Assembly: GCF_001262505.1 (NCBI RefSeq)
Contig: NZ_KQ410735.1
Coordinates: forward strand, 2,798 to 66,797
Source: Shinella sp. SUS2
GTDB lineage: Bacteria; Pseudomonadota; Alphaproteobacteria; Rhizobiales; Rhizobiaceae
Direction of reading: 5' to 3'
Length of the DNA stretch: 64,000 nt
Each line of letters opens with the position of its first letter. The first letter of the stretch is position 1. This document shows, in pieces, positions 18,826 to 46,702 of the stretch. Made by a program: the position numbers and the translations under genes. A model generated the notes under the pieces. The model was not told the DNA's origin, searched no databases, and saw only the letters and a list, made by a program, of their open reading frames with translations.

Positions 18826-19279
18826 GTTTCTGATTCTGGATCCGGCCATATGGAACCATCCGGCGACGGCCTTTGCGCCGAACGGTTTTTTGCGGGCAGG
18901 TTTCATCTCGGTGCCGCGATCAGCCATGTGACCAAACAGCGCCCGGACGGCGCGATTGGAATGGACATGGCTCAAGCGACACGCTGGTTGGCATCCTGGC
19001 CGCGTGGTGCATGAAAACGGCATTTTTTAGCCGTAAGGACAGAGACTTGCAACATGTCAACATGACCGGATGGCGCAGCATCGACCCTCATCTGCGGTTT
19101 TGGTGAATCGTGCGCCCCTCGCAGGAGGCGAGCGGACGCAAGGAGCAGGAGAATGGCAAATGGATGCGGCAGGAAAAAGTTCCCGCCCGCCCATCTGGCT
19201 GCCCGCCAAGCTGTGTCCAACCCGCCGAACGGAGCCTTGCACCATTGACTCGGTGCCGGCGCCAAGCCAGTTTGACGCC
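18826..19279. promoter_or_regulatory. Upstream region of ndvB and of the riboswitch transcript
   Basis: This 454-bp stretch lies between divergent transcripts. Next to ndvB it may encode an extension of the synthase if an upstream start is used. Beyond 19024 no gene is supported. A short hairpin ACGGC-ATTTTTTA-GCCGT lies at about 19019-19036. Promoters for ndvB (minus) and the cobalamin-riboswitch transcript (plus) are expected here but no clear boxes were identified. Confidence 0.4.
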
Positions 19280-19471
19280 GTCAGGGTCTTCCGAGTCGAT
19301 TGGCTCGGAGGCTAAGAGGGAAGCCGGTGCGATGCTCCGAAAGGAGCACCAAGACCGGCGCTGCCCCCGCAACTGTGAACGGCGAGCTGCTGTCGCTCCA
19401 TGCCACTGGTGGATTTCACCGGGAAGGCGAGACAGACGCGATGACCCGCAAGCCAGGAGACCTGCCCTGAC
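19280..19471 (+). promoter_or_regulatory. Cobalamin (adenosylcobalamin) riboswitch
   Basis: The element contains the conserved pieces of the cobalamin riboswitch in order: AGAGGGAAGCCGGTG, GCGCTGCCCCCGCAACTGTGA, CCACTGG, ACCGGGAAGGCG, ATGACCCGCAAGCC, and the B12 box AGCCAGGAGACCTGCC at 19451-19466. The closing helix P1 is perfect: GTCAGGG (19280-19286) with CCCTGAC (19465-19471). It precedes a 69-codon reading frame whose ribosome binding site is held in a hairpin, pointing to translational repression when cobalamin is bound. Confidence 0.95.
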
Positions 19472-19558
19472 ACTCGTAACGTCCATGGGCGGGGTGTCCC
19501 AGTGGTGCGCTTGCTTATCGCCTCCGGGCGAAGTTCCAGCAGCGTGCGTCCGGTCATC

Positions 19559-19876: not shown

Positions 19877-22800
19877 GTGGCCGAATCGCACCTGGACACC
19901 CTGTTCGGACCTGAACTGCCGCCACGCGATGGGCGCGAGATTCTCGCTGCCCTTCAGGCCGCCGCACGCGAGCGCATCCTGGTGCTCGACGGCGCCATGG
20001 GCACGGAAATCCAGACGCTGAAGCTGGTGGAAGAGGATTTCCGCGGCGATCGCTTCGGCGATTGCGCATGTCACCAGCAGGGCAACAATGACCTCCTGAC
20101 ACTGACCCAGCCCGGCGCGATCGAGGACATCCACTATCGCTACGCGCTGGCCGGTGCGGATATTCTCGAAACCAACACCTTCTCCTCCACGACCATCGCC
20201 CAGGCCGATTACGGCATGGAGGACATGGTCTATGAACTGAACCGTGACGGCGCCCGCCTTGCCCGCCGCGCCGGCCTCAGGGCCACCGAAAAGGACGGCC
20301 GCCGCCGCTTCGTCGCCGGCGCACTCGGCCCGACGAACCGCACGGCCTCCATCTCGCCTGACGTCAACAATCCCGGCTACCGCGCCGTCACCTTCGACGA
20401 CCTCAAGCGCGCCTATGCGGACCAGCTGCGCGGCCTCATCGACGGCGGCGCCGACATCATCCTGATCGAGACGATCTTCGACACGCTGAACGCCAAGGCG
20501 GCGATCTTCGCCACCCGCGAAGTCTTCGAGGAAAAGGGCATCGAGCTGCCCGTCATGATCTCGGGCACGATCACCGACCTCTCGGGCCGCACGCTGTCCG
20601 GTCAGACGCCGGAGGCCTTCTGGAACTCGGTACGCCACGCCGATCCCTTCTCCATCGGCCTCAACTGCGCACTCGGTGCCAACGCCATGCGCGCCCATCT
20701 CGCGGAGATCTCCTCCGTCGCGCAAACCTTCGTCTGCGCCTATCCCAATGCCGGCCTGCCGAACGCCTTCGGCAAATATGACGAGACGCCGGAGGAAATG
20801 GCCGCCCAGATCGAGGGCTTCATGCGCGATGGCCTCGTCAACATCGTCGGCGGCTGCTGCGGCTCGACGCCGGACCATATCCGCGCCATCGCGGCGGCCG
20901 CCGCACGCCACGCACCGCGCGCAATCCCCGACATCCCGCGCCACATGCGCCTCTCGGGCCTCGAGCCCTTCACGCTGACCGAGGCTATCCCCTTCGTGAA
21001 TGTCGGCGAGCGCACCAACGTCACGGGCTCGGCGAAATTCCGCAAGCTGATCACCGCGGGCGACTATGCCGCGGCGCTCGATGTCGCGCGCGACCAGGTG
21101 GCGAACGGCGCGCAGGTCATCGACATCAACATGGACGAGGGCCTGATCGATTCCGCCAAGGCCATGACGGAATATGTGAACCTCATCGCCGCAGAACCTG
21201 ACATCGCCCGTGTTCCGCTGATGATCGACAGTTCGAAATGGGAGGTGATCGAGGCAGGCCTGAAATGCGTGCAGGGCAAGCCGCTGGTCAATTCCATCTC
21301 GCTGAAGGAGGGCGAAGAGGCCTTCCTTCACCATGCCAAGCTCGTGCGCGCCTATGGCGCCGCCGTCGTCGTCATGGCCTTCGACGAGAAGGGCCAGGCC
21401 GACACGAAGGCACGCAAGGTGGAAATCTGCACCCGCGCCTACAAGCTGCTCACCGACGTCGCAGGCCTTGCACCCGAGGATATCGTCTTCGACCCAAACA
21501 TCTTCGCCGTCGCGACAGGCATCGAGGAGCACGACAATTACGGCGTCGACTTCATCGAGGCGACGGCAGAGATCACAGCAACACTGCCGCATGCCCACAT
21601 TTCCGGCGGCGTCTCCAACCTCTCCTTCTCCTTCCGCGGCAACGAGCCCGTGCGCGAGGCGATGCACGCCGTCTTCCTCTACCACGCCATCCAGGCGGGC
21701 ATGGACATGGGCATCGTCAATGCCGGCCAGCTCGCCGTCTACGACACGATCGAGCCGGACCTGCGCGAGGCCTGCGAGGACGTTGTGCTGAACCGCGTGC
21801 CGAAGACCGGCGGCACCGCTACCGAACGCCTTCTGGAGATTGCCGAGCGCTTCAAGGGCGCTGCCGGCAAGGAGGCCAAGGAGCGTGATCTCGCCTGGCG
21901 TGACTGGCCGGTGGAAAAGCGCCTCGAACACGCGCTCGTCAACGGTATTACCGAATTTGTCGAGATCGATACAGAAGAGGCTCGTCAGAACGCCGAGCGC
22001 CCGCTGCACGTCATCGAAGGTCCGCTGATGGCCGGCATGAACATCGTCGGCGACCTCTTCGGCGCGGGGAAGATGTTCCTGCCGCAGGTGGTGAAATCCG
22101 CCCGCGTGATGAAACAGGCCGTCGCCGTGCTGCTGCCCTACATGGAGGCTGAAAAGCTCGCCAATGGCGGCAGCGGCGAGCGCCAGAGCGCCGGCAAGAT
22201 CCTGATGGCGACCGTCAAGGGCGACGTGCACGATATCGGCAAGAACATCGTCGGCGTCGTGCTCGCCTGCAACAATTACGAGATCATCGACCTCGGCGTC
22301 ATGGTGCCGGCAACGAAGATTCTTGAGACGGCAAAGGCCGAAAAGGTCGACATCATCGGCCTCTCCGGCCTCATCACCCCTTCGCTCGACGAGATGGTGC
22401 ATGTCGCCGCCGAAATGGAGCGCGAGGGCTTCGACATCCCCCTCCTCATCGGCGGGGCGACGACGAGCCGCGTGCACACGGCGGTGAAGATCCATCCGCG
22501 CTACGACCGCGGCCAAACCGTCTACGTCACCGATGCCAGCCGCGCCGTCGGCGTGGTCGGCAGCCTGCTGTCGGCTGACATGAAACCCGGTTATGTCGAG
22601 ACGCTGAAGGCGGAATACCGCAAGGTCGCGGATGCCCACGCCCGAAGCGAGGCCGAAAAACAGCGCCTGCCGCTCGCCAAGGCCCGTGAAAATGCCTTCA
22701 AGGCTGATTGGTCTGCCTACCGGCCGAAGACGCCGTCCTTCCTCGGCACGCGCGTCTGGCAGGACTGGGACCTCGCGGATCTCGCCCGCTATATCGACTG

Positions 22801-23668
22801 GACCCCCTTCTTCCAGACCTGGGAGCTGAAGGGTGTCTATCCAAAAATCCTCGACGATGAGAAACAGGGCCCCGCCGCCCGCCAGCTCTTTGCCGATGCG
22901 CAGGCGATGCTGGAAAAGATCATCGCCGAAAGATGGTTCACGCCGAAAGCCGTCGTCGGCTTCTGGCCGGCCGGAACCGTGGGCGACGACATCCGCCTCT
23001 TCACCGACGAGGCGCGAAACAAGGACCTCGCCACCTTCTTCACGCTGCGCCAGCAGCTTTCGAAGCGCGACGGACGGCCGAATGTCGCCCTTTCCGATTT
23101 CGTGGCGCCTGTCGACAGTGGCAAGCCGGATTATCTCGGCGGCTTCGTCGTCACGGCCGGCATCGGGGAGATCGCCATCGCCGAACGTTTCGAGCGGGCG
23201 AATGACGACTACAACTCGATCCTCGTCAAGGCGCTGGCCGACCGCTTCGCCGAGGCCTTTGCCGAGCGCATGCACGAATATGTGCGCAAGGAACTCTGGG
23301 CCTATGCGCCGGACGAGACCTTCTCCCCGACCGACCTCATCGGCGAACCCTATGCCGGCATCCGCCCCGCGCCGGGCTATCCCGCCCAGCCGGACCATAC
23401 GGAGAAGACGGCGCTCTTCCGCCTGCTCGATGCCGAGAAGCAGATCGGTGTCGAACTCACCGAGAGTTTTGCCATGTGGCCCGGCTCCTCCGTCTCCGGC
23501 CTCTACATCGCCTCGCCGGAAAGCTACTATTTCGGCGTCGCCAAGGTGGAGCGGGACCAGGTGGAGGACTATGCCCGCCGCAAGGGCATGACCGTCATGG
23601 AAGTGGAGCGCTGGCTCGGCCCGGTACTCAACTACGTGCCAGTGACCGCGCGGGAAAACGCGGCCTGA
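19877..23668 (+). CDS. metH: Cobalamin-dependent methionine synthase
   Basis: A 1263-residue four-module enzyme that moves the methyl group of methyltetrahydrofolate to homocysteine via methylcobalamin. Modules in order: homocysteine domain (about 20-345, zinc cysteines in GLNCALG near 265 and [10 protein letters not shown] near 326), pterin domain (about 370-640), cobalamin domain with [10 protein letters not shown] (D783, axial H785), and the AdoMet reactivation domain (about 930-1250). The start is GTG with GGAGGG eight bases upstream. It follows a palindromic operator and leader hairpin, and farther upstream a cobalamin riboswitch and small gene, so cofactor supply and methionine demand may both be sensed. 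It converges on yeiH, the stop codons sharing a hairpin. Confidence 0.97.
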
Positions 23669-36240: not shown

Positions 36241-36278
36241 TGGACACTATTATGGACACATGTTCTATAAACTGGACA
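36241..36278 (+). promoter_or_regulatory. Tandem palindromic operator upstream of the 36298 gene
   Basis: TGTTCTATAAACTGGACA at 36261-36278 fits TGTYCW-N6-TGRACA. A second, less regular 18-mer, TGGACACTATTATGGACA, lies at 36241-36258. The same arrangement occurs upstream of the ABC transporter operon at 45740-45776, in the gap shared with an IclR regulator gene. The shared pattern suggests that this gene and the operon are controlled together. Confidence 0.65.
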
Positions 36279-36297
36279 GATTCGACGGGAGCTCGCC

Positions 36298-37482
36298 ATG
36301 CATCTTTCCATGTGGACCTACCCCTGGGACATCCAGGACCAGGGCATCGCGGCACTCGCCGCCGACCTTTCCGGCCGCGCCGGCCTCAACACAGTGAGCC
36401 TTGCGACCTCCTACCATGCCGGCCGCTTCCTGCAGCCGCGCAGCCCTGAGCAGAAGGCCTATTTCCCTGAAGACGGTACCGTCTATTTCCAGCCCGACGA
36501 AACGCTGTGGCAGGGCAAGACGATCCGCCCCCTTGTGGCGCAGAACGTCACCGACCGCGGCGACATGCTGGAAGCACTGACCAGAGCGCGCGCAACCACA
36601 GGACTTGCCGTCTCCTGCTGGACGGTCTGCCTGCACAACACCCGCCTCGGCATGCTGCACCCCGATCATGTGACCCGCAACGCCTTCGGCAATGCCAATT
36701 ACTACAATCTCTGCCCCTCCAGCCCGGCGGCACGCGACTATGTCGTGACGCTGGTGCGCGACATCACGGTGAACCACAAGCCCGACATGCTGGAGCTGGA
36801 AAGCCCGAACTTCATGGGCTTTGCCCACGAATACCACCATGAGAAGGACGGTGTCGGCCTCAACGCCGAGGATGACTTCCTCCTGTCGCTCTGCTTCTGC
36901 CACCATTGCACCGCCCGTGCGCGGAAGGCCGGCATACCTGTCGACAGTGCACAAAAAACGGTGGCGCGCTTCATCGCCGAACTGTGCGAACGGGCGGTGC
37001 CTGAAAAACAGTTCCCCGACTTCCCCGCCGCCGGTATCGATGCCTTCCGCGACCATCCGGAACTGCACGCCTTCCTCACCTGGCGCTCCGAGCCGGTGAC
37101 GAGCCTGATCGGCGAGATCAAGGCGGCTGCCGACCCGGCGACGCGCATCGTGCTGATCGACCTGAAGGACGGCTGGCTCGGCGGCGCCGACCTCGAGGCG
37201 GTCGGAAAGCTCTGCGACGGCGCGATCCTCTGCTGCTACGGCATGACGCCCGAGGCCGTCGGCGAGGTCATCCGCACCGGCCGGGCGATGCTCGGCCCGG
37301 ACAAATTCCTGGGGCTGGGCCTGCGCGTCTTCTATCCCGAGGTCGATGGCCCGGCCATCCTCGCCGCCCGCGCAAAGGCAGCCGTCGAGGCTGGCGCGAA
37401 CGGCGTGAACTTCTACAATTACGGGCTCATTCCGGCAAAGCGCCTCGACTGGGTGAAGGAAGCCGTCGGCGCGATCACATAG
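36298..37482 (+). CDS. Unknown enzyme-like protein, glycosidase-type barrel suspected
   Basis: A 394-residue cytoplasmic protein without signal peptide. It starts MHLSMWTYPWDIQDQG. It carries LCFCHHCTARARK with C199, C201 and C204, which could bind a metal, and an acidic strand LELESPNFMGF (E167, E169). Alternating strands and helices (SLATSYHAGRF, LAVSCWTVCLHN, AILCCYG, GVNFYNYGLI) suggest a TIM barrel like those of glycoside hydrolases. I do not recognise the family with certainty and assign no activity. It converges on the catabolic operon (40-bp gap) and shares its palindromic operator, so it likely acts in the same pathway. The ATG is preceded by GGGAG. Confidence 0.8.
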   Translation: MHLSMWTYPWDIQDQGIAALAADLSGRAGLNTVSLATSYHAGRFLQPRSPEQKAYFPEDGTVYFQPDETLWQGKTIRPLVAQNVTDRGDMLEALTRARATTGLAVSCWTVCLHNTRLGMLHPDHVTRNAFGNANYYNLCPSSPAARDYVVTLVRDITVNHKPDMLELESPNFMGFAHEYHHEKDGVGLNAEDDFLLSLCFCHHCTARARKAGIPVDSAQKTVARFIAELCERAVPEKQFPDFPAAGIDAFRDHPELHAFLTWRSEPVTSLIGEIKAAADPATRIVLIDLKDGWLGGADLEAVGKLCDGAILCCYGMTPEAVGEVIRTGRAMLGPDKFLGLGLRVFYPEVDGPAILAARAKAAVEAGANGVNFYNYGLIPAKRLDWVKEAVGAIT

Positions 37483-37522
37483 AGTCCGCCAGCTTCATAC
37501 TGAATCTGCCGAACTCCAAGGC

Positions 37523-38536
37523 TCAGCCGTCGATCGGCTCGGCGACCTGGATCAGGCAGTCGCCGGCCTGGCTGTCGCAATGCAGCCGGTGGGAGATGAC
37601 GATGCCGCCCTCGGCAAAGCGCAGCGCCTCCTCGGGCTGCTCAAGCCGTTCGAGATCGTGATACCAGCCAGCCAGATCACCTGCCGAGACGTGCGCACCG
37701 AGCGGCACGGCAGGCTCGAACCAGCCGCGCCGGCCCGCATAGATGCCCTGGCTGTGCCGGGAGAGCGACAGGAGCTGCAGGGCAGGTGGAGCTGCGAGCG
37801 GCCCGCGCGACAGCACCGGCTCTCCCGCAATGCCGAGTGCGACGAGCAGACGGTCGATCGCCGCCGCCGTAAACGCCATGCTCTCGGGCGACACGGTGCC
37901 GCCACCGCCGAACTCGCCCGAAAGGCCGATCGTGCCAGCCCGACCGGCCGCGCCCATCGAGGTCGGCGCGGCCGGCCCGTTATCGGCGATGAAGGCATGT
38001 GCGGCCCCCATCGCCCGCATCAACGTGACCGCGCGCGCAAAGCGCTCGGCATCCGCCTGCCGCTCGATCAGCGTGCAGGACAGATGCGCCATGGAGGTAC
38101 CGCCGGAGTGCAGGTCGAGCACGGCATCGTGGTGCGGGAAAAGATCATGTTCAAGGAAATGCGCCAGCCGCGCCGTCGGCGTGCCGGCCGGATCGCCGGG
38201 AAAGGCGCGGTTGAGATTGCCGCCGTCGAAGGGCGAGCAGCGCTTGGCCACCATCACCGCCGGCAGGTTCGCCATCGGCAGGATGGTGACGGCACCGCGG
38301 ATTTTCGTGATATCGAGCTGGCGCATCAGCCGCCCGAGCTGGAGCTCACCCTCGTATTCGTCACCATGGTTGCCCGCCATCAGGAGCAGGCTCGGCCCCT
38401 CGCCGTTCTTCAGCCGCAGGATGGGGATGCGGATCTGGTAGTAGGGCGAACGGTCGACGGAATAGGGAATCGCAAGATGCCCGGCCTGCCGGCCCTCCCG
38501 GAAAAGATCGATCGGATTGACGAGGCCGCTGTGCAT
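37523..38536 (-). CDS. Succinylglutamate desuccinylase/aspartoacylase-family deacylase
   Basis: A 337-residue zinc carboxypeptidase-fold protein. AGNHGDEYEGEL provides the metal ligands H57 and E60, and LDLHSGG gives H143, the set used by AstE and AspA, which remove acyl groups from N-acyl amino acids. GLSGEFGGGG near 205-213 may hold the catalytic glutamate. It is the last gene of the minus-strand operon, 24 bp after ridA. In context it may release an amino acid from an acylated compound imported by the ABC transporter. The actual substrate is unknown. Confidence 0.85.
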   Translation of the reverse strand: MHSGLVNPIDLFREGRQAGHLAIPYSVDRSPYYQIRIPILRLKNGEGPSLLLMAGNHGDEYEGELQLGRLMRQLDITKIRGAVTILPMANLPAVMVAKRCSPFDGGNLNRAFPGDPAGTPTARLAHFLEHDLFPHHDAVLDLHSGGTSMAHLSCTLIERQADAERFARAVTLMRAMGAAHAFIADNGPAAPTSMGAAGRAGTIGLSGEFGGGGTVSPESMAFTAAAIDRLLVALGIAGEPVLSRGPLAAPPALQLLSLSRHSQGIYAGRRGWFEPAVPLGAHVSAGDLAGWYHDLERLEQPEEALRFAEGGIVISHRLHCDSQAGDCLIQVAEPIDG

Positions 38537-38560
38537 GGTGGCTCCAGTTCGGGCGGGTTT

Positions 38561-38905
38561 TCAGAGTGCGGCGACGGCAGTCATCTCGACGCGCAGGTCC
38601 GGATCGGCAAGGCGCGCCTCGACGCAGGCGCGGGCCGGCGGGTTTTCCGGGTCGATCCAGGCATCATAAACGCCGTTCATCGCCTCGAAATCGACGATCG
38701 CCGGCAGGAAGACATTGACAGCGAGCAGTTTCGAGCGGTCCGTACCGGCTTCCTTCAGAAGGGCATCGATCTTGCCGAGCACGTCGCGCGTCTGGTCCTC
38801 AAGGCCGGCCTTGCGGTTTTCCGCGACCTGGCCGGCGATATAGACGAGCCCGCCATAGCTGACGGCCTGGCTCATGCGCGAACCCTTCTGGTAACGCTGG
38901 ATCAT
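38561..38905 (-). CDS. RidA-family enamine/imine deaminase
   Basis: A 114-residue Rid protein. The arginine that contacts the substrate carboxylate in RidA is present as R92 in NPPARACVEARL, and the first half (VYIAGQVAEN) is typical. RidA proteins speed hydrolysis of reactive enamines and imines, such as 2-aminoacrylate, made by PLP-dependent dehydratases. It lies 27 bp downstream of a D-serine/D-threonine deaminase-like gene, exactly the enzyme type that produces such intermediates, so a detoxifying or step-completing role is likely. AAGGAAA precedes the ATG. Confidence 0.92.
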   Translation of the reverse strand: MIQRYQKGSRMSQAVSYGGLVYIAGQVAENRKAGLEDQTRDVLGKIDALLKEAGTDRSKLLAVNVFLPAIVDFEAMNGVYDAWIDPENPPARACVEARLADPDLRVEMTAVAAL

Positions 38906-38932
38906 GGGTATTTTCCTTTCTTCCCGGGAGGA

Positions 38933-40246
38933 TCAGCCGAAGCTGGTGGTGTAGGCCGCCGTGACCGTGTGGTCAGGTGCAAGGCCGTAGAGGATCGCGT
39001 GCCGGTCGAGGCAGGTGCAGGGATGCGAGATGCCGAACTCGACCACATCACCGACGCGTACATCGCTGCCGGCGGAAAGCGCCACGAAGGCATGCTGGTC
39101 GTTGAGACGAAGCACATCGGCCCCCGCAAGAGCGGCGAGCGGCACCCCGTCGCGATAGAGAGCCAGCGGCCGCGGCAAGCCCTGGTCCATCGCGACATCC
39201 CGCAGGCCCATACCGCAGATCGCGAGCGCCGGCTCGGGCAGCGACAGCACCTCGGCCCAGACCCGGAGCACCGGCTTGAAGTCGCTGCCGGCGGAGCGGA
39301 CCTGCCCGCCGAACCGGAAGCCCGCACGGGCGTCGAGGCCGGCAAGACCGCGCTCGTAAACGCCGTGGTCATGGAAGAAGATCGCCCCGCTGCGCAGCAC
39401 GAGCAAACTATCGGGATCGGCCGCGACGGCGGCAGAGAGACCGGCGATCACCCGGTCGAAAAAGACCGAACCGCCCGCTGTGACGATCAGCGGCCGCGCA
39501 TCGCCAATGCGGGCGCGAACCTCCGGCAGGAAGGCCGCCGTCATCGCCACCAGCCCGTCGATCCGGCGCAGCGTCTCTTCCGCATCCGCCGTTGCGGCGG
39601 CCCCCTCGTAGGCGGCGATGCCAGTGAACCGGAAGGTGGGCGTTTCCGCGGCAAGGATGGCATCGAGGATCGCGCCTGCCGCCTCGGCGCTGCGTGCTCC
39701 GGCACGGCCCGCGCCAAATTCGACGAGAAGGCCGAGCGGCGGCAGACCGCTGCGGCCATGCCAGGCGACCCGCAGGGCTTCGACCAGGTCAATGGAATCG
39801 ACGAAGACATGCAGCGCTGCATCGGGATAGTTTGCGGCAAGCGCTGCAAGCCGGCGTGCAGCCGCGGCCCCGCCGATCTCGTTGGCGAGGATCAGCCGGC
39901 GCTGGCCAGCCTTCAGCAGTACCGCCGCCTGGCGGATATCCGCCACCGTGGTGCCCCACGCGCCGGCCGCCAGCAGCGTGCCGGCAATCGCCGCCGACAT
40001 CGGCGTCTTCGCATGGGGTGCGATCGCGACGCCGTGATCGCGTACATACTCCATCATCAGCGCGACATTGCCGGCAAAGGCCGCACGATCGAGCGAGATC
40101 AGCGGCAGCGCCATCGCACCGTCATAGGGCTTCCAGCCTTGCTTGCCGACGGCATCCAGCGGCAGGGGCGCATGGCCCGGCGGGAAGCCGCGGATGCGGT
40201 CGTCGATTACCGGATTGTCCGGTCCGGTCACGGAAAGGTCAGGCAT
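38933..40246 (-). CDS. D-serine/D-threonine deaminase-like PLP enzyme (DSD1 family)
   Basis: A 437-residue fold-type III PLP enzyme. The N-terminal alanine-racemase-like barrel has IAPHAKTPMS, where K80 is the likely PLP lysine. The C-terminal domain ends with ISHPCTCLDRHAILYG, giving H408 and C410 as the metal pair of eukaryotic-type D-serine dehydratases and D-threonine aldolases. Proteins of this length are often called amino acid deaminase and occur next to RidA, as here. Substrate preference (D-serine, D-threonine or hydroxy-amino acid) cannot be told. GGGAG precedes ATG 40246, which overlaps the end of the upstream amidohydrolase gene by eight bases. Confidence 0.88.
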   Translation of the reverse strand: MPDLSVTGPDNPVIDDRIRGFPPGHAPLPLDAVGKQGWKPYDGAMALPLISLDRAAFAGNVALMMEYVRDHGVAIAPHAKTPMSAAIAGTLLAAGAWGTTVADIRQAAVLLKAGQRRLILANEIGGAAAARRLAALAANYPDAALHVFVDSIDLVEALRVAWHGRSGLPPLGLLVEFGAGRAGARSAEAAGAILDAILAAETPTFRFTGIAAYEGAAATADAEETLRRIDGLVAMTAAFLPEVRARIGDARPLIVTAGGSVFFDRVIAGLSAAVAADPDSLLVLRSGAIFFHDHGVYERGLAGLDARAGFRFGGQVRSAGSDFKPVLRVWAEVLSLPEPALAICGMGLRDVAMDQGLPRPLALYRDGVPLAALAGADVLRLNDQHAFVALSAGSDVRVGDVVEFGISHPCTCLDRHAILYGLAPDHTVTAAYTTSFG

Positions 40247-41195
40247 GGTTTTCTCCCTTGGCCGCGACGGGATCGGCGATCCCGAGGCGATAGGTGTCAT
40301 TGGCAGTCGTGAAAAAGAGGGCACGCTGCTCGTCGAGCGAAAGCGGCGCGGCCGCGGCGCGGAAAACGGCGTAGACCTCGTCGAACGAGGCGTGCAGGCC
40401 GGCGACCGGAAAATCGCTGGCGAACATGGTTCGAGCGGGGCCAAAACAGGCGAGGCAATGCTCGATCACCGGCCGCAGGCTTTCCGGCGTCCAGTCATTG
40501 TCATAGGCGACGAGGTCGGAGATCTTCAACCGGACATTCGGCTCACGACCGAGCGCCGCAAGGCCACCGCGCCAGAGCGTCATACCCTCCGCGCTGCGAT
40601 CGGCCGGGCTGCCGCCATGGTTGAGCACGAAGAGTATCTGCGGAAAGGCCCGCACGAGATCGAGCGCCTCATCCATCTGCCACGGATAGAGCATGAGGTC
40701 GAAAACGAGGCCGAAACGGGCGAGACGGGCAAGGCCGGCGCGCCAGCGGGGATCGGCCATGCGGCGGGCGCGGGGTGCGAAGCTCTTTGCCGGTTCGGGA
40801 TGCCAGCTGACGATATCGCGGATGCCGGCGACATCGGGATTGGCGGCCTCCGCCTCGATCAGGCGCGCGGCATCCGGGCTGTCGAGCGGCACGCGGGCGA
40901 TGATACGCTTCGCCACACCGGAGGACCGGTCGAGACCGGCAAGCCAGCGGCTTTCCTCCAGCGGATGGGCGTCGGACCAGCCGGCCTCGACATGCACGGT
41001 GGCCACCACGTTCTGGCTCGCCGCATCGGCGCTGTAGTCCGCAACGCCATAATCCCTAAGGATCGGCGCCAGGCTGCCGAAGACCATCTCGCCGCCGGTC
41101 GCCCGGGCCATTTCCAACCAGGGATGACGTTTGAGCGACAGATCCCAGAGATGGTGGTGCGGGTCGATGACCGGCCCATCATAACGCACCGTCAT
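40239..41195 (-). CDS. Amidohydrolase-family protein, lactonase-like
   Basis: A 318-residue TIM-barrel hydrolase of the amidohydrolase_2 family (PF04909 type). It begins with VIDPHHHLWDLSLKRHPWL, the form seen in sugar lactonases and 2-pyrone-4,6-dicarboxylate lactonases. The active-site region near the end includes MFASDFPVAG, with the expected aspartate. It may open a lactone or cleave an amide in the imported substrate. The gene overlaps the permease upstream by four bases and the PLP enzyme downstream by eight, so expression with the transporter is tight. Confidence 0.87.
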   Translation of the reverse strand: MTVRYDGPVIDPHHHLWDLSLKRHPWLEMARATGGEMVFGSLAPILRDYGVADYSADAASQNVVATVHVEAGWSDAHPLEESRWLAGLDRSSGVAKRIIARVPLDSPDAARLIEAEAANPDVAGIRDIVSWHPEPAKSFAPRARRMADPRWRAGLARLARFGLVFDLMLYPWQMDEALDLVRAFPQILFVLNHGGSPADRSAEGMTLWRGGLAALGREPNVRLKISDLVAYDNDWTPESLRPVIEHCLACFGPARTMFASDFPVAGLHASFDEVYAVFRAAAAPLSLDEQRALFFTTANDTYRLGIADPVAAKGENHA

Positions 41196-42133
41196 CGGCG
41201 CGCCTCTCGGCCGGAAATGAGCAGAAGCGCGAGGATCAGCGAACCAAACATGATCGAGCGCCAGCCGGGCGAGGCGTTGACGACGGTGATCAGCGCCGTG
41301 GTGGTGACGAGCAGGATGGCACCGGGAATGGTGCCGGCATAAGTGCCGCGCCCACCGAGGATAGAGGTGCCGCCGAGCACGACCGCGGCGATCGACATCA
41401 GGAGATAGGGATCGCCGATGCCGACATAGCCTTGCCGGTTCATGCCGAGCACCAGAATGCCGGCAAGCCCCGCGAAGAAGCCGGACAGCGCATAGAGAAG
41501 CAGCGTGTTCCTGGCAACGCTGACGCCGGAAAGCCGGGCAGCCAGCGGATTGGCCCCGAGCGCGAGGAAGCGCGCGCCGAGCGGCGTGCGATGGATGATG
41601 AGCAGTACCGCGATCGAAACGACGATCCAGAGGATGATGCCGGCGGGAACGCCGAGGGGGCGCGCCTGGCCGAGCAGGATGACCGCCGGGTTGCTCACCG
41701 TGACCGCGCTGCCGCCGGCGACGATGACGAGCAGTCCCTGAAGAAACGTCGCCATGGCGAGCGTCATGATGATCGGCGGCACGCGCAGATAGGCCGCACC
41801 CGCCCCGTTGAGGAGGCCGATGCCGGTGGCGATGGCAAGGACGAGCACGATGCCGACGAGGCCGGTCGGGTCCGAGGCCGGCGAGATCAGCGGCAACAGG
41901 ATCGCCGTGACGGTGATCACGGCCCCGACGGAGAGGTCGATGCCGCCCATCAGGATGACCAGCGTCTGCCCGGCCGCGACGATGCCGATGACGGCGGCAA
42001 GCTCCAGGAGATAGCGCAGGTGCCCGTAGGCGCCGAAGCCGCGCAGCGTGAGGCTGGCGACAAGCCAGACGAGCGCCACAAGGAGGAAGGTCAGGAGCGG
42101 CGGATTGCGGAACACGGATTTCACGGCCTTCAT
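41192..42133 (-). CDS. Sugar-type ABC transporter permease (second)
   Basis: A 313-residue membrane protein of the RbsC-like branched/ribose permease family (PF02653 type), with eight to ten hydrophobic segments. Family segments include GQTLVILMGGIDLSVGAV and the cytoplasmic coupling region LGANPLAARLSGVSV. GGIDLSVG is well kept. ATG 42133 has GGAG upstream and overlaps the preceding permease stop by four bases. Two different permease genes follow one ATPase gene, so the channel is probably a heterodimer. Confidence 0.93.
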   Translation of the reverse strand: MKAVKSVFRNPPLLTFLLVALVWLVASLTLRGFGAYGHLRYLLELAAVIGIVAAGQTLVILMGGIDLSVGAVITVTAILLPLISPASDPTGLVGIVLVLAIATGIGLLNGAGAAYLRVPPIIMTLAMATFLQGLLVIVAGGSAVTVSNPAVILLGQARPLGVPAGIILWIVVSIAVLLIIHRTPLGARFLALGANPLAARLSGVSVARNTLLLYALSGFFAGLAGILVLGMNRQGYVGIGDPYLLMSIAAVVLGGTSILGGRGTYAGTIPGAILLVTTTALITVVNASPGWRSIMFGSLILALLLISGREARR

Positions 42134-43095
42134 CGCCTTGCCCTCCACTGTTTCAAGAGTTCCGGCACCGCGACGGCACCGACAATGATCAGGCCCTGCG
42201 CGACATATTGTGCGACCGGCGGAAAACCGAGGAAGAACATCACGTTGATCATGACCGAGAGCAGCAGGCTGCCGCAGATCGCGCCACGCATCGTGCCCTT
42301 GCCGCCGAGGAAACCGACGCCGCCGAGCACGGCGGCCGCGATCGAATTCAGCGTGAAGGGCGTGCCGATGACCGGATCGCCCGAGCCCGTCTGCGCCGCG
42401 ACAAAGAGGCCGGCCAGCGCCGCCAGCAGACCGGACAGCGCGAAGGCGACGATCTTGACCCGCTCGACCGGAACGCCCGAGCGGAAGGCGCCGATCGGGT
42501 TGTCGCCGGCGGCATAGATGCCGATGCCGAGCGGTGTCGCGAGAAATGCTTTCCAGGCGAGAAGGACGACGACGAGCAGCAGGAAGGCAACCGGCGTGTG
42601 GCCGGCGAGCGTGGTCGACAGCCAGTCCGGAATGAAGCCGCCCGGGCGCGGCAACAGGATCAGCGCGACACCGGTAATGATGAAGGAGCCAGCCAGCGTG
42701 ACGATGATGGCCGGCAGCCGCAGATGCGCGACGATGGCGCCGATGACGGCACCGATGGCAAGGCCGGTGAGCGCGACAGCGAGGATGCCGCCGGGCACGC
42801 CGAATGCGCTGCCCATCGTCGTCGCCGCAATCACGGCGCCAAGGCTCACCAGCGGGCCGATGGCGAGCGTGATGCCGCCATTCAGCATCAGGAGTGCCTG
42901 CGCCATGGTGACGAGCGCCAGCGGGAACCAGTTCTGCGTGAACTTGGAAAAACCGCCGACCGAAAGGATGCCGGGAAAGAGCACCGCATAAAGGACGAGG
43001 AAGGCGGCGACGACCAGGTAGAGGCCGCCAAGACCGCGATTGCGACCGCGCTGGATGGCGCCGTAGAGCCAGCCGGAAGACGGAACGGCACTCAT
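42130..43095 (-). CDS. Sugar-type ABC transporter permease (first)
   Basis: A 321-residue RbsC-like permease with about nine membrane segments, a long N-terminal cytoplasmic part (MSAVPSSGWLYGAIQRGRNR) and the coupling region GIYAAGDNPIGAFRSGVPV. In place of GGIDLSVG it has NGGITLAIGPL, a divergent version that often marks the partner subunit in two-permease systems. It overlaps the ATPase gene and the next permease gene by four bases each. Confidence 0.92.
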   Translation of the reverse strand: MSAVPSSGWLYGAIQRGRNRGLGGLYLVVAAFLVLYAVLFPGILSVGGFSKFTQNWFPLALVTMAQALLMLNGGITLAIGPLVSLGAVIAATTMGSAFGVPGGILAVALTGLAIGAVIGAIVAHLRLPAIIVTLAGSFIITGVALILLPRPGGFIPDWLSTTLAGHTPVAFLLLVVVLLAWKAFLATPLGIGIYAAGDNPIGAFRSGVPVERVKIVAFALSGLLAALAGLFVAAQTGSGDPVIGTPFTLNSIAAAVLGGVGFLGGKGTMRGAICGSLLLSVMINVMFFLGFPPVAQYVAQGLIIVGAVAVPELLKQWRARR

Positions 43096-44600
43096 GCGGC
43101 CTCTCCCTGTTTGTGGATGCCCATGGCGGCGCCGACGATGGCCTCCTCGCTGATTGCCGCACCGGAAAGCCGGGCAGCGACGCGCCCCTCGCGCAGCACG
43201 ACGACACGATCGCACAGGTGCACGAGTTCCGGTGTGTCGGAGCTTGCAAGGATGACGAGCCGCCCCTCGGCAGCGAAGGCGCGCAGCATGAGGTAGATCT
43301 CGCGCTTCGTCTCGATATCGACGCCGCGCGTCGGATCGTTGAGCAGCAGCACGGACGGATCGAGCGGCAGCCACTTGGCGAGCGCCACCTTCTGCTGGTT
43401 GCCGCCCGAGAGCGCCTGGACCGGCCGGGCGACATCGCCCTTGATCGTCAGGCGCCGCGCCAGGTCGGCGATCAGCCCGGCCTCCGCCGTGCGGTCGCGA
43501 AAGCCGCCCCGCGCGAGCCGGCCGAGCGAGGGCAGGATGAGGTTGGAGGCGATGGAATGGGGCAGGACGAGCCCCTCATGCTTGCGGTCCGCCGGCACAT
43601 AGACGATGCCCGCTGCATTCGCCTCGCCGACATGGGCCGGCAGGCGGGGAAGACCGGAGACCTCCGCATGGCTCGCCTTCGCGGGAATGGCACCGTAAAG
43701 GCCGAGCAAAAGGTCTTCCTGCCCCTGCCCGACAAGGCCGCCGATGCCGACGATCTCGCCGGCGCGGGCGGAAAAGCCGATCTCGCGTACGAGGCCGGCC
43801 GAGAATTTCTCGACAGTGATGCGTGTCGCACCGGCTTCGGCAACCGGGCGCGGCGGGAAGAGATCGCCCGTCTCCCGGCCGACCATGAGGCGAACGAGCC
43901 CCTCGCCGTCGATGCCGGCGAGCGACTGGTCCGCCGTGACGCCGCCATCCTTCAACACCGTAACATGCGAGCAGAGCGCCTGCACCTCGTTGAGCCGATG
44001 GGAAATATAGAGAAGCGCCGTGCCGCGATCGCGCAGCGTCTCGATGAGACGGGCGAGAATGCCGGCCTCATGCGCGGAAAGCGAGGAGGTCGGCTCATCG
44101 AGGATGAGCACGCGCGGCTTGCGGAACAATGCCTTGGCAATCTCCACCATCTGCCGGCGGCCGAGCGCAAGATCGGCGACCGGCATGTCGAGCGGCTCGG
44201 TAAGCCCGACCATGTCGCAGACCTCCCGCACGCCCCTGTGAAGCGCGGCATAGTCGATGAGGCCGAAGCGGCGCGGAAAGGCGCCGAGCCCGATATTCTC
44301 GGCGATCGACAGGTCGGCGGTGAGGCTCAGCTCCTGCTGCACCACAGCGATACCCGCACCGCGGGCGGCAGCCGGGCTGAAACGCCCGACCGGCCGCCCC
44401 TCGACGAGGATGGCGCCGCTGTCCGGCTGGAGAGCGCCGGAAAGGAGATTGATCAGCGTGGATTTTCCAGCGCCGTTCTCCCCGAGCAGGGCATGGACCC
44501 TGCCCGGGTGAAGGGCGATATCGACGCCCTTCAGAACCGGATTGCCGAAAAATCCCTTGAACACCTGCCGGGCTTCCAGCAGGGGTCTTGTTTCCGTCAT
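43092..44600 (-). CDS. Sugar-type ABC transporter ATP-binding protein, RbsA-like
   Basis: A 502-residue protein with two nucleotide-binding domains in tandem. The first has Walker A GENGAGKST at 40-48, Walker B VLILDEPTSSLS and LALGRRQMVEIAKAL. The second has the degenerate Walker A typical of RbsA-type proteins and the signature ALSGGNQQKVALAKWL with LLNDPTRGVDI. ATG 44600 has GAAGGA upstream and lies 19 bp after the binding-protein gene. It energises uptake through the two permeases encoded downstream. Confidence 0.94.
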   Translation of the reverse strand: MTETRPLLEARQVFKGFFGNPVLKGVDIALHPGRVHALLGENGAGKSTLINLLSGALQPDSGAILVEGRPVGRFSPAAARGAGIAVVQQELSLTADLSIAENIGLGAFPRRFGLIDYAALHRGVREVCDMVGLTEPLDMPVADLALGRRQMVEIAKALFRKPRVLILDEPTSSLSAHEAGILARLIETLRDRGTALLYISHRLNEVQALCSHVTVLKDGGVTADQSLAGIDGEGLVRLMVGRETGDLFPPRPVAEAGATRITVEKFSAGLVREIGFSARAGEIVGIGGLVGQGQEDLLLGLYGAIPAKASHAEVSGLPRLPAHVGEANAAGIVYVPADRKHEGLVLPHSIASNLILPSLGRLARGGFRDRTAEAGLIADLARRLTIKGDVARPVQALSGGNQQKVALAKWLPLDPSVLLLNDPTRGVDIETKREIYLMLRAFAAEGRLVILASSDTPELVHLCDRVVVLREGRVAARLSGAAISEEAIVGAAMGIHKQGEAA

Positions 44601-44619
44601 GACGGCATCCTTCAGGGAA

Positions 44620-45690
44620 TTACTGGGCGAGCAGCTTGTCGAACAGCGCCTTGTCGTAATCCGAATAGATGTAACCGTCGGCCGGGAACTTGTCGGCGCG
44701 GGCGAGATAGGTGTCGATGGTGCTGTCGTCGATGACCGGCAGCGGCACCTTGATGAAGGCCGGCACGTCCTTGCCTTCCAGCGCCTGTACGGCCGTGTAG
44801 ACCGAGAGCGCACCAAGCCAGTTCGGCTGCATGGTGGCCCAGCCCTTCAGGCCCTTTTCCTTCCACAGTTCGAGGAACTGGCGGGCGTTTTCGCCGGTGA
44901 TCGGCACCTGCTCGCGACCCTGGCGATCAAAGGCCATGACGGAACCGGCCGAAATCGCGCCACCGAGCGAGAGCACGCCGTCGATTTGCGGATTGGCGAA
45001 GAGCAGGCTGGTCATCGCCTCCTGCGCCGGCGCGGCATTGTATTCCGTGTTGGTCTCGGTGATGATTTCCAGGCCCGGATTGGCGTCGAGCACAGGCTGG
45101 GCACCCTTGCGGCGGTCATCGCTGACGGAAATGCCGGCCGGACCGTTCATGACGATGATCTTGCCCTTGCCGCCGAGCTTGTCGGCAAGCCACTTGGCAG
45201 CGCCCGCGCCCCATTCGTTGGAATCGGTATTGATCTTCGCCGTCACCTTGTCCGTGTTGACGAGGCTGTCGAAGTTCACCACGGCGATACCCTTGTCGCA
45301 GGCATCCGAAATGACGCGGTCGAGCGCATTGGAGGAACCGGCGATGACCACGATCGCGTCGACATTCGCGTCGATCATCGACTGGATGTGCTGGATCTGC
45401 GTCTGGGCATTGCCCTGCGCGTCCGTGATCATCAGGTCCTTCACGAGACCGGCCTTCTTCAGCTCCTCGACCTCGGCGGCGATGGTGCCTTCGGTCTGCT
45501 TCATCCAGGTCGGCACCGAATAGATGTTCGCCCAGCCGACCGTATACGGCGCCTTGCGGTCGCCCTTGATGCAATTGGCGGCGGCCGAGGCGGTGCCGGC
45601 CGACAGGACGAGGACGGCCGCAGCGGCGGCGGCACCCGCAAGAAGGCGGCTGCGCAGCGAGACGGTCGAGCTGTTTTCGAGAGTTTTCAT
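44620..45690 (-). CDS. Periplasmic substrate-binding protein, ribose-type
   Basis: A 356-residue exported protein: signal peptide about 1-36 (RSRLLAGAAAAAAVLVLSAG, cleavage near ASA|A), then a type-I periplasmic binding domain (Peripla_BP_4 type) with SMIDANVDAIVVIAGSS and the hinge region ISDACDKGIAVVNFDS. No lipobox cysteine stands at the cleavage site, so it is soluble. ATG 45690 has GGGGAA five bases upstream. It is the first gene of the operon, behind a tandem palindromic operator. The ligand is unknown; the family binds sugars, but also autoinducer-2 and amino-acid conjugates. Confidence 0.93.
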   Translation of the reverse strand: MKTLENSSTVSLRSRLLAGAAAAAAVLVLSAGTASAAANCIKGDRKAPYTVGWANIYSVPTWMKQTEGTIAAEVEELKKAGLVKDLMITDAQGNAQTQIQHIQSMIDANVDAIVVIAGSSNALDRVISDACDKGIAVVNFDSLVNTDKVTAKINTDSNEWGAGAAKWLADKLGGKGKIIVMNGPAGISVSDDRRKGAQPVLDANPGLEIITETNTEYNAAPAQEAMTSLLFANPQIDGVLSLGGAISAGSVMAFDRQGREQVPITGENARQFLELWKEKGLKGWATMQPNWLGALSVYTAVQALEGKDVPAFIKVPLPVIDDSTIDTYLARADKFPADGYIYSDYDKALFDKLLAQ

Positions 45691-45739
45691 GTCGTTCCCC
45701 TTTTTTGGTGGCAGCAGGTACGGGCTTGCCATCCGTCTT

Positions 45740-45776
45740 TGTCCATTATATTGAACATTTGATCTATATATCGGAC
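45740..45776 (-). promoter_or_regulatory. Tandem palindromic operator upstream of the ABC operon
   Basis: TGTCCATTATATTGAACA at 45740-45757 is an 18-bp imperfect palindrome; a weaker copy, TGATCTATATATCGGACT, follows at 45759-45776. Read on the minus strand, ATGTTCAATATAATGGACA matches ATGTTCTATAAACTGGACA at 36260-36278 at most positions with identical spacing. The gap is shared with the IclR gene, the natural candidate for the protein that binds here. Confidence 0.65.
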
Positions 45777-45919
45777 TGGCGCGATCTTATGCCGAATTTT
45801 CGGCCTCGCAAGAGGGGGCCTTCGGAAATTTCGCGCACGGCAATGCCGCGTCCTGCGCATTGACAGATGGCGCGGGCGGCGGGAGAAGCTTGACGGGACG
45901 AAGGGCAAGGACGGACGAG

Positions 45920-46702
45920 ATGGATGCTATTGCGGATGATGCAGGCGGCAAGCGCGCCCGAGGGCTCGATCGCGCCTTCGAGATCCTCGATTTCCTGCGC
46001 CAGAAACGGCAAGCTCTGAAACCGAACGAGATCGCCGCGCAGATCGGCGCGCCGCGCTCATCGGTCTATGAGCTGGTGAACCTCCTCCTGCGCAACGGCA
46101 TCCTGGAATTCACCGGCGGCGACGGCCGGGTCTATCTCGGGCGGAAACTCTATTTCCTGGGGGCTGCCTACGAGAACCATTTCGACTTCACCCGCGAATG
46201 CGAGGCGGCACTGGATCGGCTGGCCGACGAAACGCGCGAGACCGCGCAGTTCTGCATGCTGGATGGCAACAAATATACCGTCGTGCGCATGCGCGAGGGC
46301 GCAAGGCCCTTCCGCATCTCCACCGATATCGGCCAGTCGGTACCGATCCCGTGGACGGCTTCAGGACGCCTGCTCGTCGCGCATATGACGAACGAAGAAA
46401 TCCTCACCTTCATCCCGCCGCAGGATTTCCAGCTGCCCGGCGGCGAATGGCTCGATCCGCAGGTTTTCCTCGCCGAGGTGCGCCAGGCCGGGCAGGACGG
46501 TTTCTTCACCTTCAACAGCATCGTCGACAGCTTTACCCATTGCTTCGCCGTGCCGGTCATGGACGAGGGACATGCCGCCGCCACGCTCTGCCTCGTCACC
46601 CCGCGCGACGACGGGCTGGCCAACCGCGATCGCTACCTCGTCTGCCTGAAGGACGCCGCCGCCAGCCTGAGCCAGGCGCCGACGCGGCCGAAGCGCAGCT
46701 AG
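45920..46702 (+). CDS. IclR-family transcriptional regulator
   Basis: A 260-residue regulator with a winged helix-turn-helix at about 15-75 (LDRAFEILDFLRQKRQALKPNEIA, then RSSVYELVNLLLRNG) and an IclR effector domain from about 90 (CMLDGNKYTVVRMREG, DIGQSVPIPWTASGRLLVA). It is divergent from the binding-protein gene, and the 229-bp gap holds the tandem palindromes. It therefore probably controls the transporter operon, itself, and by the shared site the 36298 gene. ATG 45920 is preferred over an in-frame ATG at 45860. The effector is presumably the imported compound or a breakdown product. Confidence 0.92.
   Translation: MDAIADDAGGKRARGLDRAFEILDFLRQKRQALKPNEIAAQIGAPRSSVYELVNLLLRNGILEFTGGDGRVYLGRKLYFLGAAYENHFDFTRECEAALDRLADETRETAQFCMLDGNKYTVVRMREGARPFRISTDIGQSVPIPWTASGRLLVAHMTNEEILTFIPPQDFQLPGGEWLDPQVFLAEVRQAGQDGFFTFNSIVDSFTHCFAVPVMDEGHAAATLCLVTPRDDGLANRDRYLVCLKDAAASLSQAPTRPKRS

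What the first reader, a model, noticed from the sequence alone, without database searches (positions are those of the whole stretch)
36241..46702. Undescribed catabolic regulon: ABC importer, lactonase-like, D-amino-acid deaminase-like, RidA, deacylase, IclR
Eight minus-strand genes in tight series (overlaps of 4-8 bases, or gaps of 19-27 bp) encode a ribose-type importer plus four enzymes. A ninth, unknown enzyme gene converges on them and has the same palindrome upstream. Family knowledge: DSD1-type enzymes release reactive enamines that RidA hydrolyses, AstE/AspA proteins remove N-acyl groups, and PF04909 proteins open lactones or cleave amides. Inference: import of a conjugated amino acid (perhaps D-form or glycosylated), hydrolysis, deacylation, then deamination to a keto acid. 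I know of no described pathway with this exact set.
Basis: partly seen in the sequence, partly recalled or inferred. Interest (0 to 1): 0.75.

Follow-up and report, generated by a model that had tools for sequence, protein, structure and literature searches.

The report
Rhizobial operon for acylated amino-sugar acids?
A set of ten genes shared by many soil and root-nodule bacteria, whose substrate I could not find described, looks like a machine for importing an unusual nitrogen-containing sugar derivative and breaking it down, and it includes a protein that matched no entry in the two family catalogues searched.

Summary
Eight minus-strand genes (37523-45690) encode a ribose-type importer (B-E), a COG3618-type hydrolase (F), a fold-III PLP deaminase (G), RidA (H) and an AstE/DoeB-type deacylase (I), between a divergent IclR gene and a convergent gene, J (36298-37482), without Pfam match. 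Of the 80 best J loci kept, 61 hold all of B-I beside J, in Shinella, Rhizobium (also plasmid pRL10 of R. johnstonii 3841), Mesorhizobium, Labrys and Nitratireductor. The shared palindrome is confirmed: a full-score site lies upstream of J in 34 of 39 loci where J needs its own promoter, in 0 of 29 where J is co-directional with the operon. AlphaFold (pLDDT 88) gives J a barrel nearest glycoside hydrolases (PgaB, GH42). One distant J locus combines it with a deaminase, RidA, a D-aminoacylase and 2-keto-3-deoxy-aldonate kinase/aldolase genes. Best reading: uptake of an N-acyl amino-sugar acid as glycoside or lactone, then ring opening, deacylation and RidA-assisted deamination. It works like the ong pathway for oxidised chitin but is not a member: other importer, other deacylase, G outside the OngC clade. 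Substrate unproven.

The parts
45920..46702 (+). R: IclR-family regulator (ORF open from 45860; ATG at 45920 preferred)
   Evidence: Pfam IclR_C and HTH_IclR; best NCBIfam hits PcaR/PcaU and BhcR, far below their cut-offs
45740..45757 (-). predicted operator upstream of B, TGTTC-N8-GGACA
   Evidence: score 9 or 10 in 300 bp upstream of B in 50 of 68 loci
44620..45690 (-). B: periplasmic substrate-binding protein, ribose (CUT2) type; N-terminus reads as a signal peptide
   Evidence: Pfam Peripla_BP_4 4.5e-52; closest solved chain 2ioy, 4.4e-26
43092..44600 (-). C: double ATPase of the sugar importer
   Evidence: ABC_tran, two stretches; AraG/RbsA-like, below equivalog cut-offs
42130..43095 (-). 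D: importer permease 1
   Evidence: BPD_transp_2 2.4e-31 (the reference given was out of frame and gave no hit)
41192..42133 (-). E: importer permease 2
   Evidence: BPD_transp_2 2e-30
40239..41195 (-). F: COG3618-type metal-dependent hydrolase (COG name recalled), predicted sugar lactonase
   Evidence: Amidohydro_2 5.8e-35; only NCBIfam hit L-fucono-1,5-lactonase at 97 bits of a 400-bit cut-off; closest solved chain 4dlf
38933..40246 (-). G: fold-III PLP, metal-dependent D-amino-acid (predicted hexosaminate) deaminase
   Evidence: D-ser_dehydrat + Ala_racemase_N; 3gwq over residues 10-432; motifs PHAKT and HPC present
38561..38905 (-). H: Rid-family enamine/imine hydrolase
   Evidence: Ribonuc_L-PSP 5e-26; TIGR00004 68.5 bits, below its 106.25 cut-off
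37523..38536 (-). I: AstE/AspA/DoeB-type zinc deacylase
   Evidence: AstE_AspA_cat 1.4e-46; DoeB model 189.7 bits of 402.7; motifs GNHGDE, DLHSGG and SGEFGG; the last is SGEFGG in 24 of 29 aligned sequences
36298..37482 (+). J: (beta/alpha)8-barrel protein without a Pfam match and without a signal peptide by my reading, predicted glycoside hydrolase
   Evidence: no Pfam; sub-threshold GHL10/GHL6/DUF4015 hits in 6 of 10 distant homologues; AlphaFold pLDDT 88.0, pTM 0.89; nearest folds PgaB, Cwp19, a fucosidase, GH42
36261..36278 (+). predicted operator upstream of J, same motif as upstream of B
   Evidence: full score in 34 of 39 loci where J is convergent

Best explanation
It is a catabolic regulon, probably controlled by the IclR protein. 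(1) A CUT2 importer (B-E) brings in a neutral or lactone-form conjugate that contains an N-acylated 2-amino-2-deoxy-aldonic acid; a C1-oxidised amino-sugar disaccharide such as chitobionate is the best single guess. (2) J, a glycoside-hydrolase-like barrel, cleaves the glycosidic bond in the cytoplasm. (3) F opens the aldonolactone. (4) I removes the N-acyl group; some relatives add a second, D-aminoacylase-type hydrolase K. (5) G eliminates the amine as an enamine, and (6) H hydrolyses it to a 2-keto-3-deoxy-aldonate. (7) Kinase and aldolase genes elsewhere in the genome (a DGOK gene next to an aldolase gene, and a second aldolase gene) finish the route. Shown: gene content, spacing, conservation, operator conservation, predicted fold of J, presence of the downstream gene families. 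Inferred: regulation by R, every reaction, their order, and the substrate. I put about 0.65 on 'N-acyl amino-acid-like compound, deacylated then deaminated', and about 0.35 on the hexosaminate version.
Confidence: 0.42

Rival explanations
1. Conjugated D-amino acid route: the substrate is an N-acylated or glycosylated D-serine, D-threonine or beta-hydroxy-D-amino acid. J removes a sugar, F cleaves an amide or ester, I deacylates, and G plus H give a simple 2-keto acid.
For: The closest solved relative of G is named D-serine deaminase (3gwq). The clade around G includes clusters with polar-amino-acid importers, hydantoinases and SolA-like genes. OngC itself also deaminates D-Ser and D-Thr.
Against: The importer is of a sugar type; the only NCBIfam match of F is a sugar lactonase, below cut-off; one distant J cluster carries 2-keto-3-deoxy-aldonate kinase and aldolase genes.
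Confidence: 0.27
2. N-acyl amino acid lactone route, for example an acyl-homoserine lactone or a related signal: F opens the lactone, I removes the acyl chain, G and H deaminate.
For: Lactonase-like, deacylase and deaminase genes in one operon; rhizobia meet such lactones (search listing only).
Against: Fold-III deaminases act on D-amino acids while these lactones are L (recalled); a glycoside-hydrolase-like J has no role; one distant J homologue sits in a sugar-acid cluster.
Confidence: 0.05
3. Ordinary sugar regulon: the operon is for a simple sugar or polyol, and G, H and I act on a side product or repair damage.
For: Importer and F are of sugar types; binding proteins similar to B include CUT2 carbohydrate-uptake entries; L202 lacks G and H.
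Against: No dehydrogenase or kinase for a simple sugar in the operon; all of B-I stay next to J in 61 of 80 loci, which repair genes would not need; ribose-type pocket residues are replaced.
Confidence: 0.1
4. J is not a glycosidase but a metal-dependent barrel enzyme (isomerase, epimerase or lyase), and the substrate is a single modified sugar acid.
For: Invariant His40, His113 and His181 with Glu168 (19 of 19) and CFCxxC (18 of 19 sequences); no acid at beta7 in 7 of 19.
Against: The top structural matches are dominated by glycoside hydrolases; weak GHL10 hits recur in 5 of 10 distant homologues.
Confidence: 0.15

Closest known systems
ong cluster for oxidised chitin, Pseudoalteromonas prydzensis ACAM 620 (PMC9537276; OngB structure PMC12017989)
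   Same: Deacetylase, fold-III PLP deaminase and a RidA-family gene together, with a dedicated regulator; a 2-keto acid as expected product.
   Different: CUT2 ABC importer instead of an SSS symporter; AstE/DoeB-type deacylase instead of the D-aminoacylase-fold OngB; extra COG3618-type hydrolase; J instead of GH20 OngA; IclR instead of RpiR; no KdgK in the operon; G outside the OngC-side clade.
Amino-acid-importer clusters with G, RidA and AstE in Azospirillum and Agrobacterium fabrum pAt
   Same: Relatives of G (56% and 45%) and of I (66% and 60%) plus an annotated RidA gene.
   Different: Polar-amino-acid ABC importer and LacI regulator; no F and no J in the stretches read; substrate not annotated.
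DoeB / EutE, N2-acetyl-L-2,4-diaminobutanoate deacetylase
   Same: Same protein family as I; similarity over residues 9-331 to 6twl/6twm.
   Different: 189.7 bits against a 402.7-bit equivalog cut-off; no other ectoine genes in the operon.
L-fucono-1,5-lactonase (NF052480)
   Same: Same hydrolase family as F.
   Different: 97 bits against a 400-bit cut-off; no fucose genes in the operon.
PgaB C-terminal hydrolase domain and GH42 beta-galactosidases
   Different: About 12-14% identity; beta7 acid not conserved in the J family.
BhcC/BhcR hydroxyaspartate system
   Same: G resembles BhcC and R resembles BhcR in family.
   Different: 84 of 690 bits and 60 of 350 bits; no other bhc genes in the operon.

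Membership tests
ong oxidative chitin pathway | D-aminoacylase-fold GlcNAc1A deacetylase (OngB) with motif SSS...Q | tested here: not met
   No such gene in the window operon; of 13 K sequences aligned only the Pseudoalteromonas one has SSST (residue roles from PMC12017989 passages)
ong oxidative chitin pathway | Deaminase within the OngC clade | tested here: not met
   G falls in the other of two sister clades; support 0.984 for the one with the Pseudoalteromonas NC201 protein, taken as OngC from its place beside an OngB
ong oxidative chitin pathway | RidA-family gene in the cluster | tested here: met
   H, Ribonuc_L-PSP 5e-26
ong oxidative chitin pathway | SSS importer, GH20 hexosaminidase and KDG kinase in the cluster | tested here: not met
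   Importer is an ABC type; no GH20 or kinase among the operon proteins
ong oxidative chitin pathway | Turnover of GlcNAc1A to KDG, acetate and ammonia | not testable with these tools
   Needs enzymes and substrate
Fold-III PLP D-amino-acid deaminase/aldolase family (DSD1 type) | PLP lysine motif and C-terminal metal site (His-x-Cys) | tested here: met
   PHAKT and HPC motifs aligned across homologues; motif roles recalled
AstE/AspA zinc deacylase family | Catalytic domain over the curated cut-off | tested here: met
   158.9 bits against 25
DoeB equivalog | Score over TIGR02994 cut-off | tested here: not met
   189.7 of 402.7 bits
L-fucono-1,5-lactonase equivalog | Score over NF052480 cut-off | tested here: not met
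   97.4 of 400 bits
RidA subfamily (TIGR00004) | Score over the subfamily cut-off | tested here: not met
   68.5 of 106.25 bits; the wider Rid superfamily is met through Pfam
CUT2 (ribose-type) ABC importer | Binding protein, double ATPase and permeases of the sugar type | tested here: met
   Peripla_BP_4, two ABC_tran stretches, two BPD_transp_2 proteins
Glycoside hydrolase barrels (PgaB-like, GH42-like) for J | Same fold | tested here: met
Glycoside hydrolase clan GH-A for J | Catalytic glutamates at the ends of beta4 and beta7 | tested here: not met
   beta4 Glu168 19 of 19; beta7 position 348 Glu 7, Asp 5, other 7 of 19
Known Pfam glycosyl-hydrolase-like families for J | Match over the gathering score | tested here: not met
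   Window J has none; 10 distant homologues only sub-threshold hits

The most novel reading that the evidence does not exclude
An alphaproteobacterial counterpart of the ong pathway: rhizobia and relatives scavenge oxidised amino-sugar conjugates (C1-oxidised chitin fragments, or the 2-aminogluconate part of rhizobial lipid A) through a CUT2 importer, a new glycoside-hydrolase family (J), an aldonolactonase and an AstE-type N-acyl-hexosaminate deacylase. The genes are widespread on rhizobial plasmids.
Probability: 0.3. Interest if true: 0.7.

Novelty: new variant of a known kind. Interest (0 to 1): 0.5.

Why it matters
The operon is present in a model legume symbiont (R. johnstonii 3841, RL_RS29475-RL_RS29520) and a J relative is on 114 Rhizobium plasmid records, yet my searches of the open-access library showed no described substrate. 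If right, it adds a nitrogen and carbon source to the known diet of root bacteria, links oxidised chitin (or lipid A) turnover to the rhizosphere, and gives a first role to a barrel family (J) without a Pfam match that also occurs in haloarchaea.

Tried and rejected
Papers. Old locus tags of R. leguminosarum pRL10: a guessed set gave 0 papers; 'pRL1004' gave 8 papers, and the passages seen in two of them (PMC5118466, PMC11103875) name pRL100469 and pRL100453 only, which I did not map to this operon. Term searches for a described pathway (listings of at most 40 papers) showed only the ong papers as close matches to my eye. For PMC9537276 I saw passages, the outline with abstract and sections 13 and 17; for PMC12017989 passages; for PMC4192682 passages (glucosaminate in bean root exudate, found without phosphate but not with it at 10 days); for PMC11901934 one reference-list passage (a 1994 title on 2-amino-2-deoxygluconate in Rhizobium lipid A); all others as search listings only.

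Considered and dropped. 'K is OngB': rejected, specificity motif missing. 'J is a standard clan GH-A glycosidase': not accepted. 'Operator proven by genome-wide motif count': not accepted, the bare pattern is common. 'Divergent F/G promoter in Mesorhizobium uses the same operator': not found, at least 6 mismatches in all 23 F-G gaps scanned. Acyl-homoserine lactones: see rivals. One distant J (L167) gave a sub-threshold hit to a phage cell-wall-binding domain instead of GHL10. The 50 rows shown of the pdb_via list are nearly all glycoside hydrolases, with glucosyltransferase and beta-amylase rows; absence there proves nothing.

Limits. E-values of the genome search are per genome. The 80 J loci are the best 80 of 101; many are close Rhizobium or Mesorhizobium relatives, so counts are not independent. 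L040 and L101 are one Labrys locus, L044 and L109 one Faunimonas locus, fetched twice; the counts on 80 loci use L058-L137 only, without duplicates. Gene calls in fetched genomes are my own crude ORF picks and only some were checked with Pfam or NCBIfam. Operator controls are 400 random pieces of the window per length. Recalled, from no call: pocket roles in ribose-binding proteins, PLP/metal motif roles of DSD1 enzymes, the name COG3618, what PgaB hydrolyses, Cwp19 as a peptidoglycan enzyme, typical CUT2 cargo.
Full report
What is there. The window comes from a 7.0 Mb, 109-contig genome that looks like Shinella: the closest J loci are S. granuli and S. yambaruensis at 93-94%. On the minus strand eight genes run in series from 45690 to 37523: B binding protein, C double ATPase, D and E permeases, F Amidohydro_2 hydrolase, G fold-III PLP protein, H Rid-family protein, I AstE/AspA deacylase. 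An IclR gene (R) starts divergently from B. J (36298-37482, plus strand) converges on I and has no Pfam match.

Regulation. TGTYC-N8-GGACA sites lie at 36261-36278 (before J) and 45740-45757 (before B). Across the window and 80 J loci I scored the best TGTYC-N8-GRACA site in 150 bp upstream of J. Where J is convergent to I and must have its own promoter, 34 of 39 loci (window included) have the full score of 10; the 5 misses (L084, L093, L094, L101, L109) score 7 or 8. Where J is co-directional with I, 0 of 29 reach 10 and one reaches 9. In 13 loci no I over 60% identity is near; one of them, L108, has a full-score site. Of 400 random 150-bp pieces of the window 1 reached 10. Upstream of B (300 bp) 50 of 68 loci score 9 or 10, against 19 of 400 random pieces. 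Most Mesorhizobium-type loci have a related site (TGTCTGAAATACCGGACA type) before B, with a diverged R of 44-47% where R was in the stretch. Many loci are close relatives, so these are not independent events, but the site goes with the need for a separate promoter. That R binds it is inference.

Conservation. One genome-contig scan with J found 101 relatives; the best 80 are kept. At 50% identity or more, 61 of 80 have all of B-I near J. Of the other 19, 6 have J in a second operon type (another ribose-type importer, a PTE-like protein whose best NCBIfam hit is phospho-furanose lactonase below cut-off, a creatininase-family protein, a GntR regulator, a xylulokinase-like kinase); 5 have neither set; 5 lack one gene of B-I (L083 and L109 F, L094 and L100 H, L135 G); L124 has no G or H at that level; L117 is cut by the contig end; L106 keeps only H and K. 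In Faunimonas (L044/L109) F is missing and the PTE and creatininase genes of the second type stand beside J. A D-aminoacylase-like gene K sits between I and J in Labrys, Nitratireductor and others. In R. johnstonii 3841 the whole set is RL_RS29475 to RL_RS29520 on pRL10. 152 plasmid records hold a J relative, 114 of them Rhizobium; those of haloarchaea are at roughly 26-32%.

What the parts may do. G has the PLP-lysine and metal motifs of the DSD1-type family and matches 3gwq over nearly its full length. In a tree it lies with proteins from Azospirillum, Agrobacterium and Sinorhizobium; in Azospirillum and Agrobacterium G, RidA and AstE genes come with a polar-amino-acid importer. The OngC type, here the protein of Pseudoalteromonas NC201, whose neighbouring K-type gene matches solved PpOngB at 4.6e-173, lies in a sister clade (support 0.984). 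I is a DoeB-like deacylase and F lactonase-like. Eight loci around F relatives (45-57%) give a mixed picture: L203, L205 and L209 carry Gfo/Idh-like and sugar-type ABC genes by my reading (Gfo/Idh checked by Pfam in L203 only), L204 a ribose-type importer with a Rid gene, L206 a branched-chain-type binding protein, L207 and L208 no sugar genes that I could see, and L202 is itself a J operon.

Distant contexts of J. I read seven distant bacterial loci (L053, L163-L168) and four haloarchaeal ones. L167 has J with an SDR, an ABC ATPase, a deaminase of the OngC side, an RpiR regulator, a D-aminoacylase, a 2-keto-3-deoxy-galactonokinase and a KDPG-type aldolase, with a binding protein, permeases (my reading) and a Rid gene divergent. 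Its D-aminoacylase lacks the OngB motif. L053 has J (34%), a G-type protein (36%) and a K-type protein (40%) in one stretch. L164 has Gfo/Idh and amidohydrolase proteins by Pfam, a remote G-type protein (27%) and a Rid-like ORF; L163 and L165 have Gfo/Idh-like ORFs by my reading; L166 and L168 creatininase-like, Rid-like and other genes. Haloarcula has J with a creatininase-family gene, an enolase-superfamily gene, an SDR and a Rid gene; Haladaptatus pallidirubidus with a dipeptide epimerase, an aminotransferase and an M20 peptidase; Halomontanus shows neither amide hydrolase nor Rid gene nearby. So J often, not always, goes with an amide hydrolase, a PLP or Rid gene and a sugar oxidoreductase; a kinase and aldolase for 2-keto-3-deoxy-aldonate were seen in L167 only.

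Modules. In L124 the J-F-E-D-C-B block lies next to a Rid-like ORF, G, an amino-acid-type importer (Rid and importer by my reading) and I, and there G and I belong to the Agrobacterium clade (supports 1.0 and 0.996). In Aureimonas the block B-G plus J lies next to an amino-acid importer with its own AstE gene. I read this as two modules: importer, F and J deliver an N-acyl amino-acid-like compound; I, G and H degrade it. L202, with B-F, I and J but neither G nor H in the stretch, shows that the last two can be absent together.

Interpretation. The ong work showed deacetylation of GlcNAc1A, deamination of the product to KDG, and loss of growth on deleting the RidA-family gene, whose biochemical role is left open since OngC made KDG without it (PMC9537276, passages and section 13); GlcNAc1A is in equilibrium with its lactone (PMC12017989, passage). 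The window operon fits that chemistry with extra steps for a glycoside (J) and a lactone (F). The own genome has a DGOK gene beside an aldolase gene and a second aldolase, no AA10 LPMO match and two GH20 genes, so it would scavenge rather than make oxidised chitin. None of the reactions is shown. Membership in the ong pathway fails on the deacetylase, deaminase clade, importer and in-cluster enzymes; the claim is that it works like it.

Verdict. A real, conserved regulon with no substrate that I could find described; a new variant of a known kind; substrate class inferred at moderate confidence; J is the most interesting single part.

Noticed in passing
L107, L110-L115, L119-L122, L125-L129, L131-L134, L136, L137, L045: In these 23 loci (mostly Mesorhizobium) F lies on the opposite strand in the middle of the operon, divergent from G (gap about 80-140 bp); the B operator motif is not found in that gap.
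   Followed up: partly
L095, L098, L099, L102, L108, L130: A second J operon: J, ribose-type importer, PTE-family lactonase-like protein, creatininase-family protein, GntR regulator, xylulokinase-like kinase on the other strand; substrate unknown.
   Followed up: partly
L139, L140, L143, L144: Haloarchaeal plasmids encode J homologues (about 27-32%) near creatininase, Rid, enolase-superfamily, M20 or Gfo/Idh genes, varying by locus.
   Followed up: partly
L169 (9357-9624): A same-family genome holds two short J fragments (67% and 65%) in different frames, a probable J relic.
   Followed up: no
window 19267-19483 and 19877-23668: Cobalamin riboswitch upstream of a B12-dependent methionine synthase; ordinary.
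   Followed up: no
window 10324-19023: 2,899-aa minus-strand protein with GH94 and glucoamylase-like domains, resembling cyclic beta-1,2-glucan synthase (name recalled; domains).
   Followed up: no
L108, 150 bp upstream of J: A full-score palindrome TGTCCCCTTGTGCGGACA upstream of J in a locus of the second operon type; chance or another regulator.
   Followed up: no
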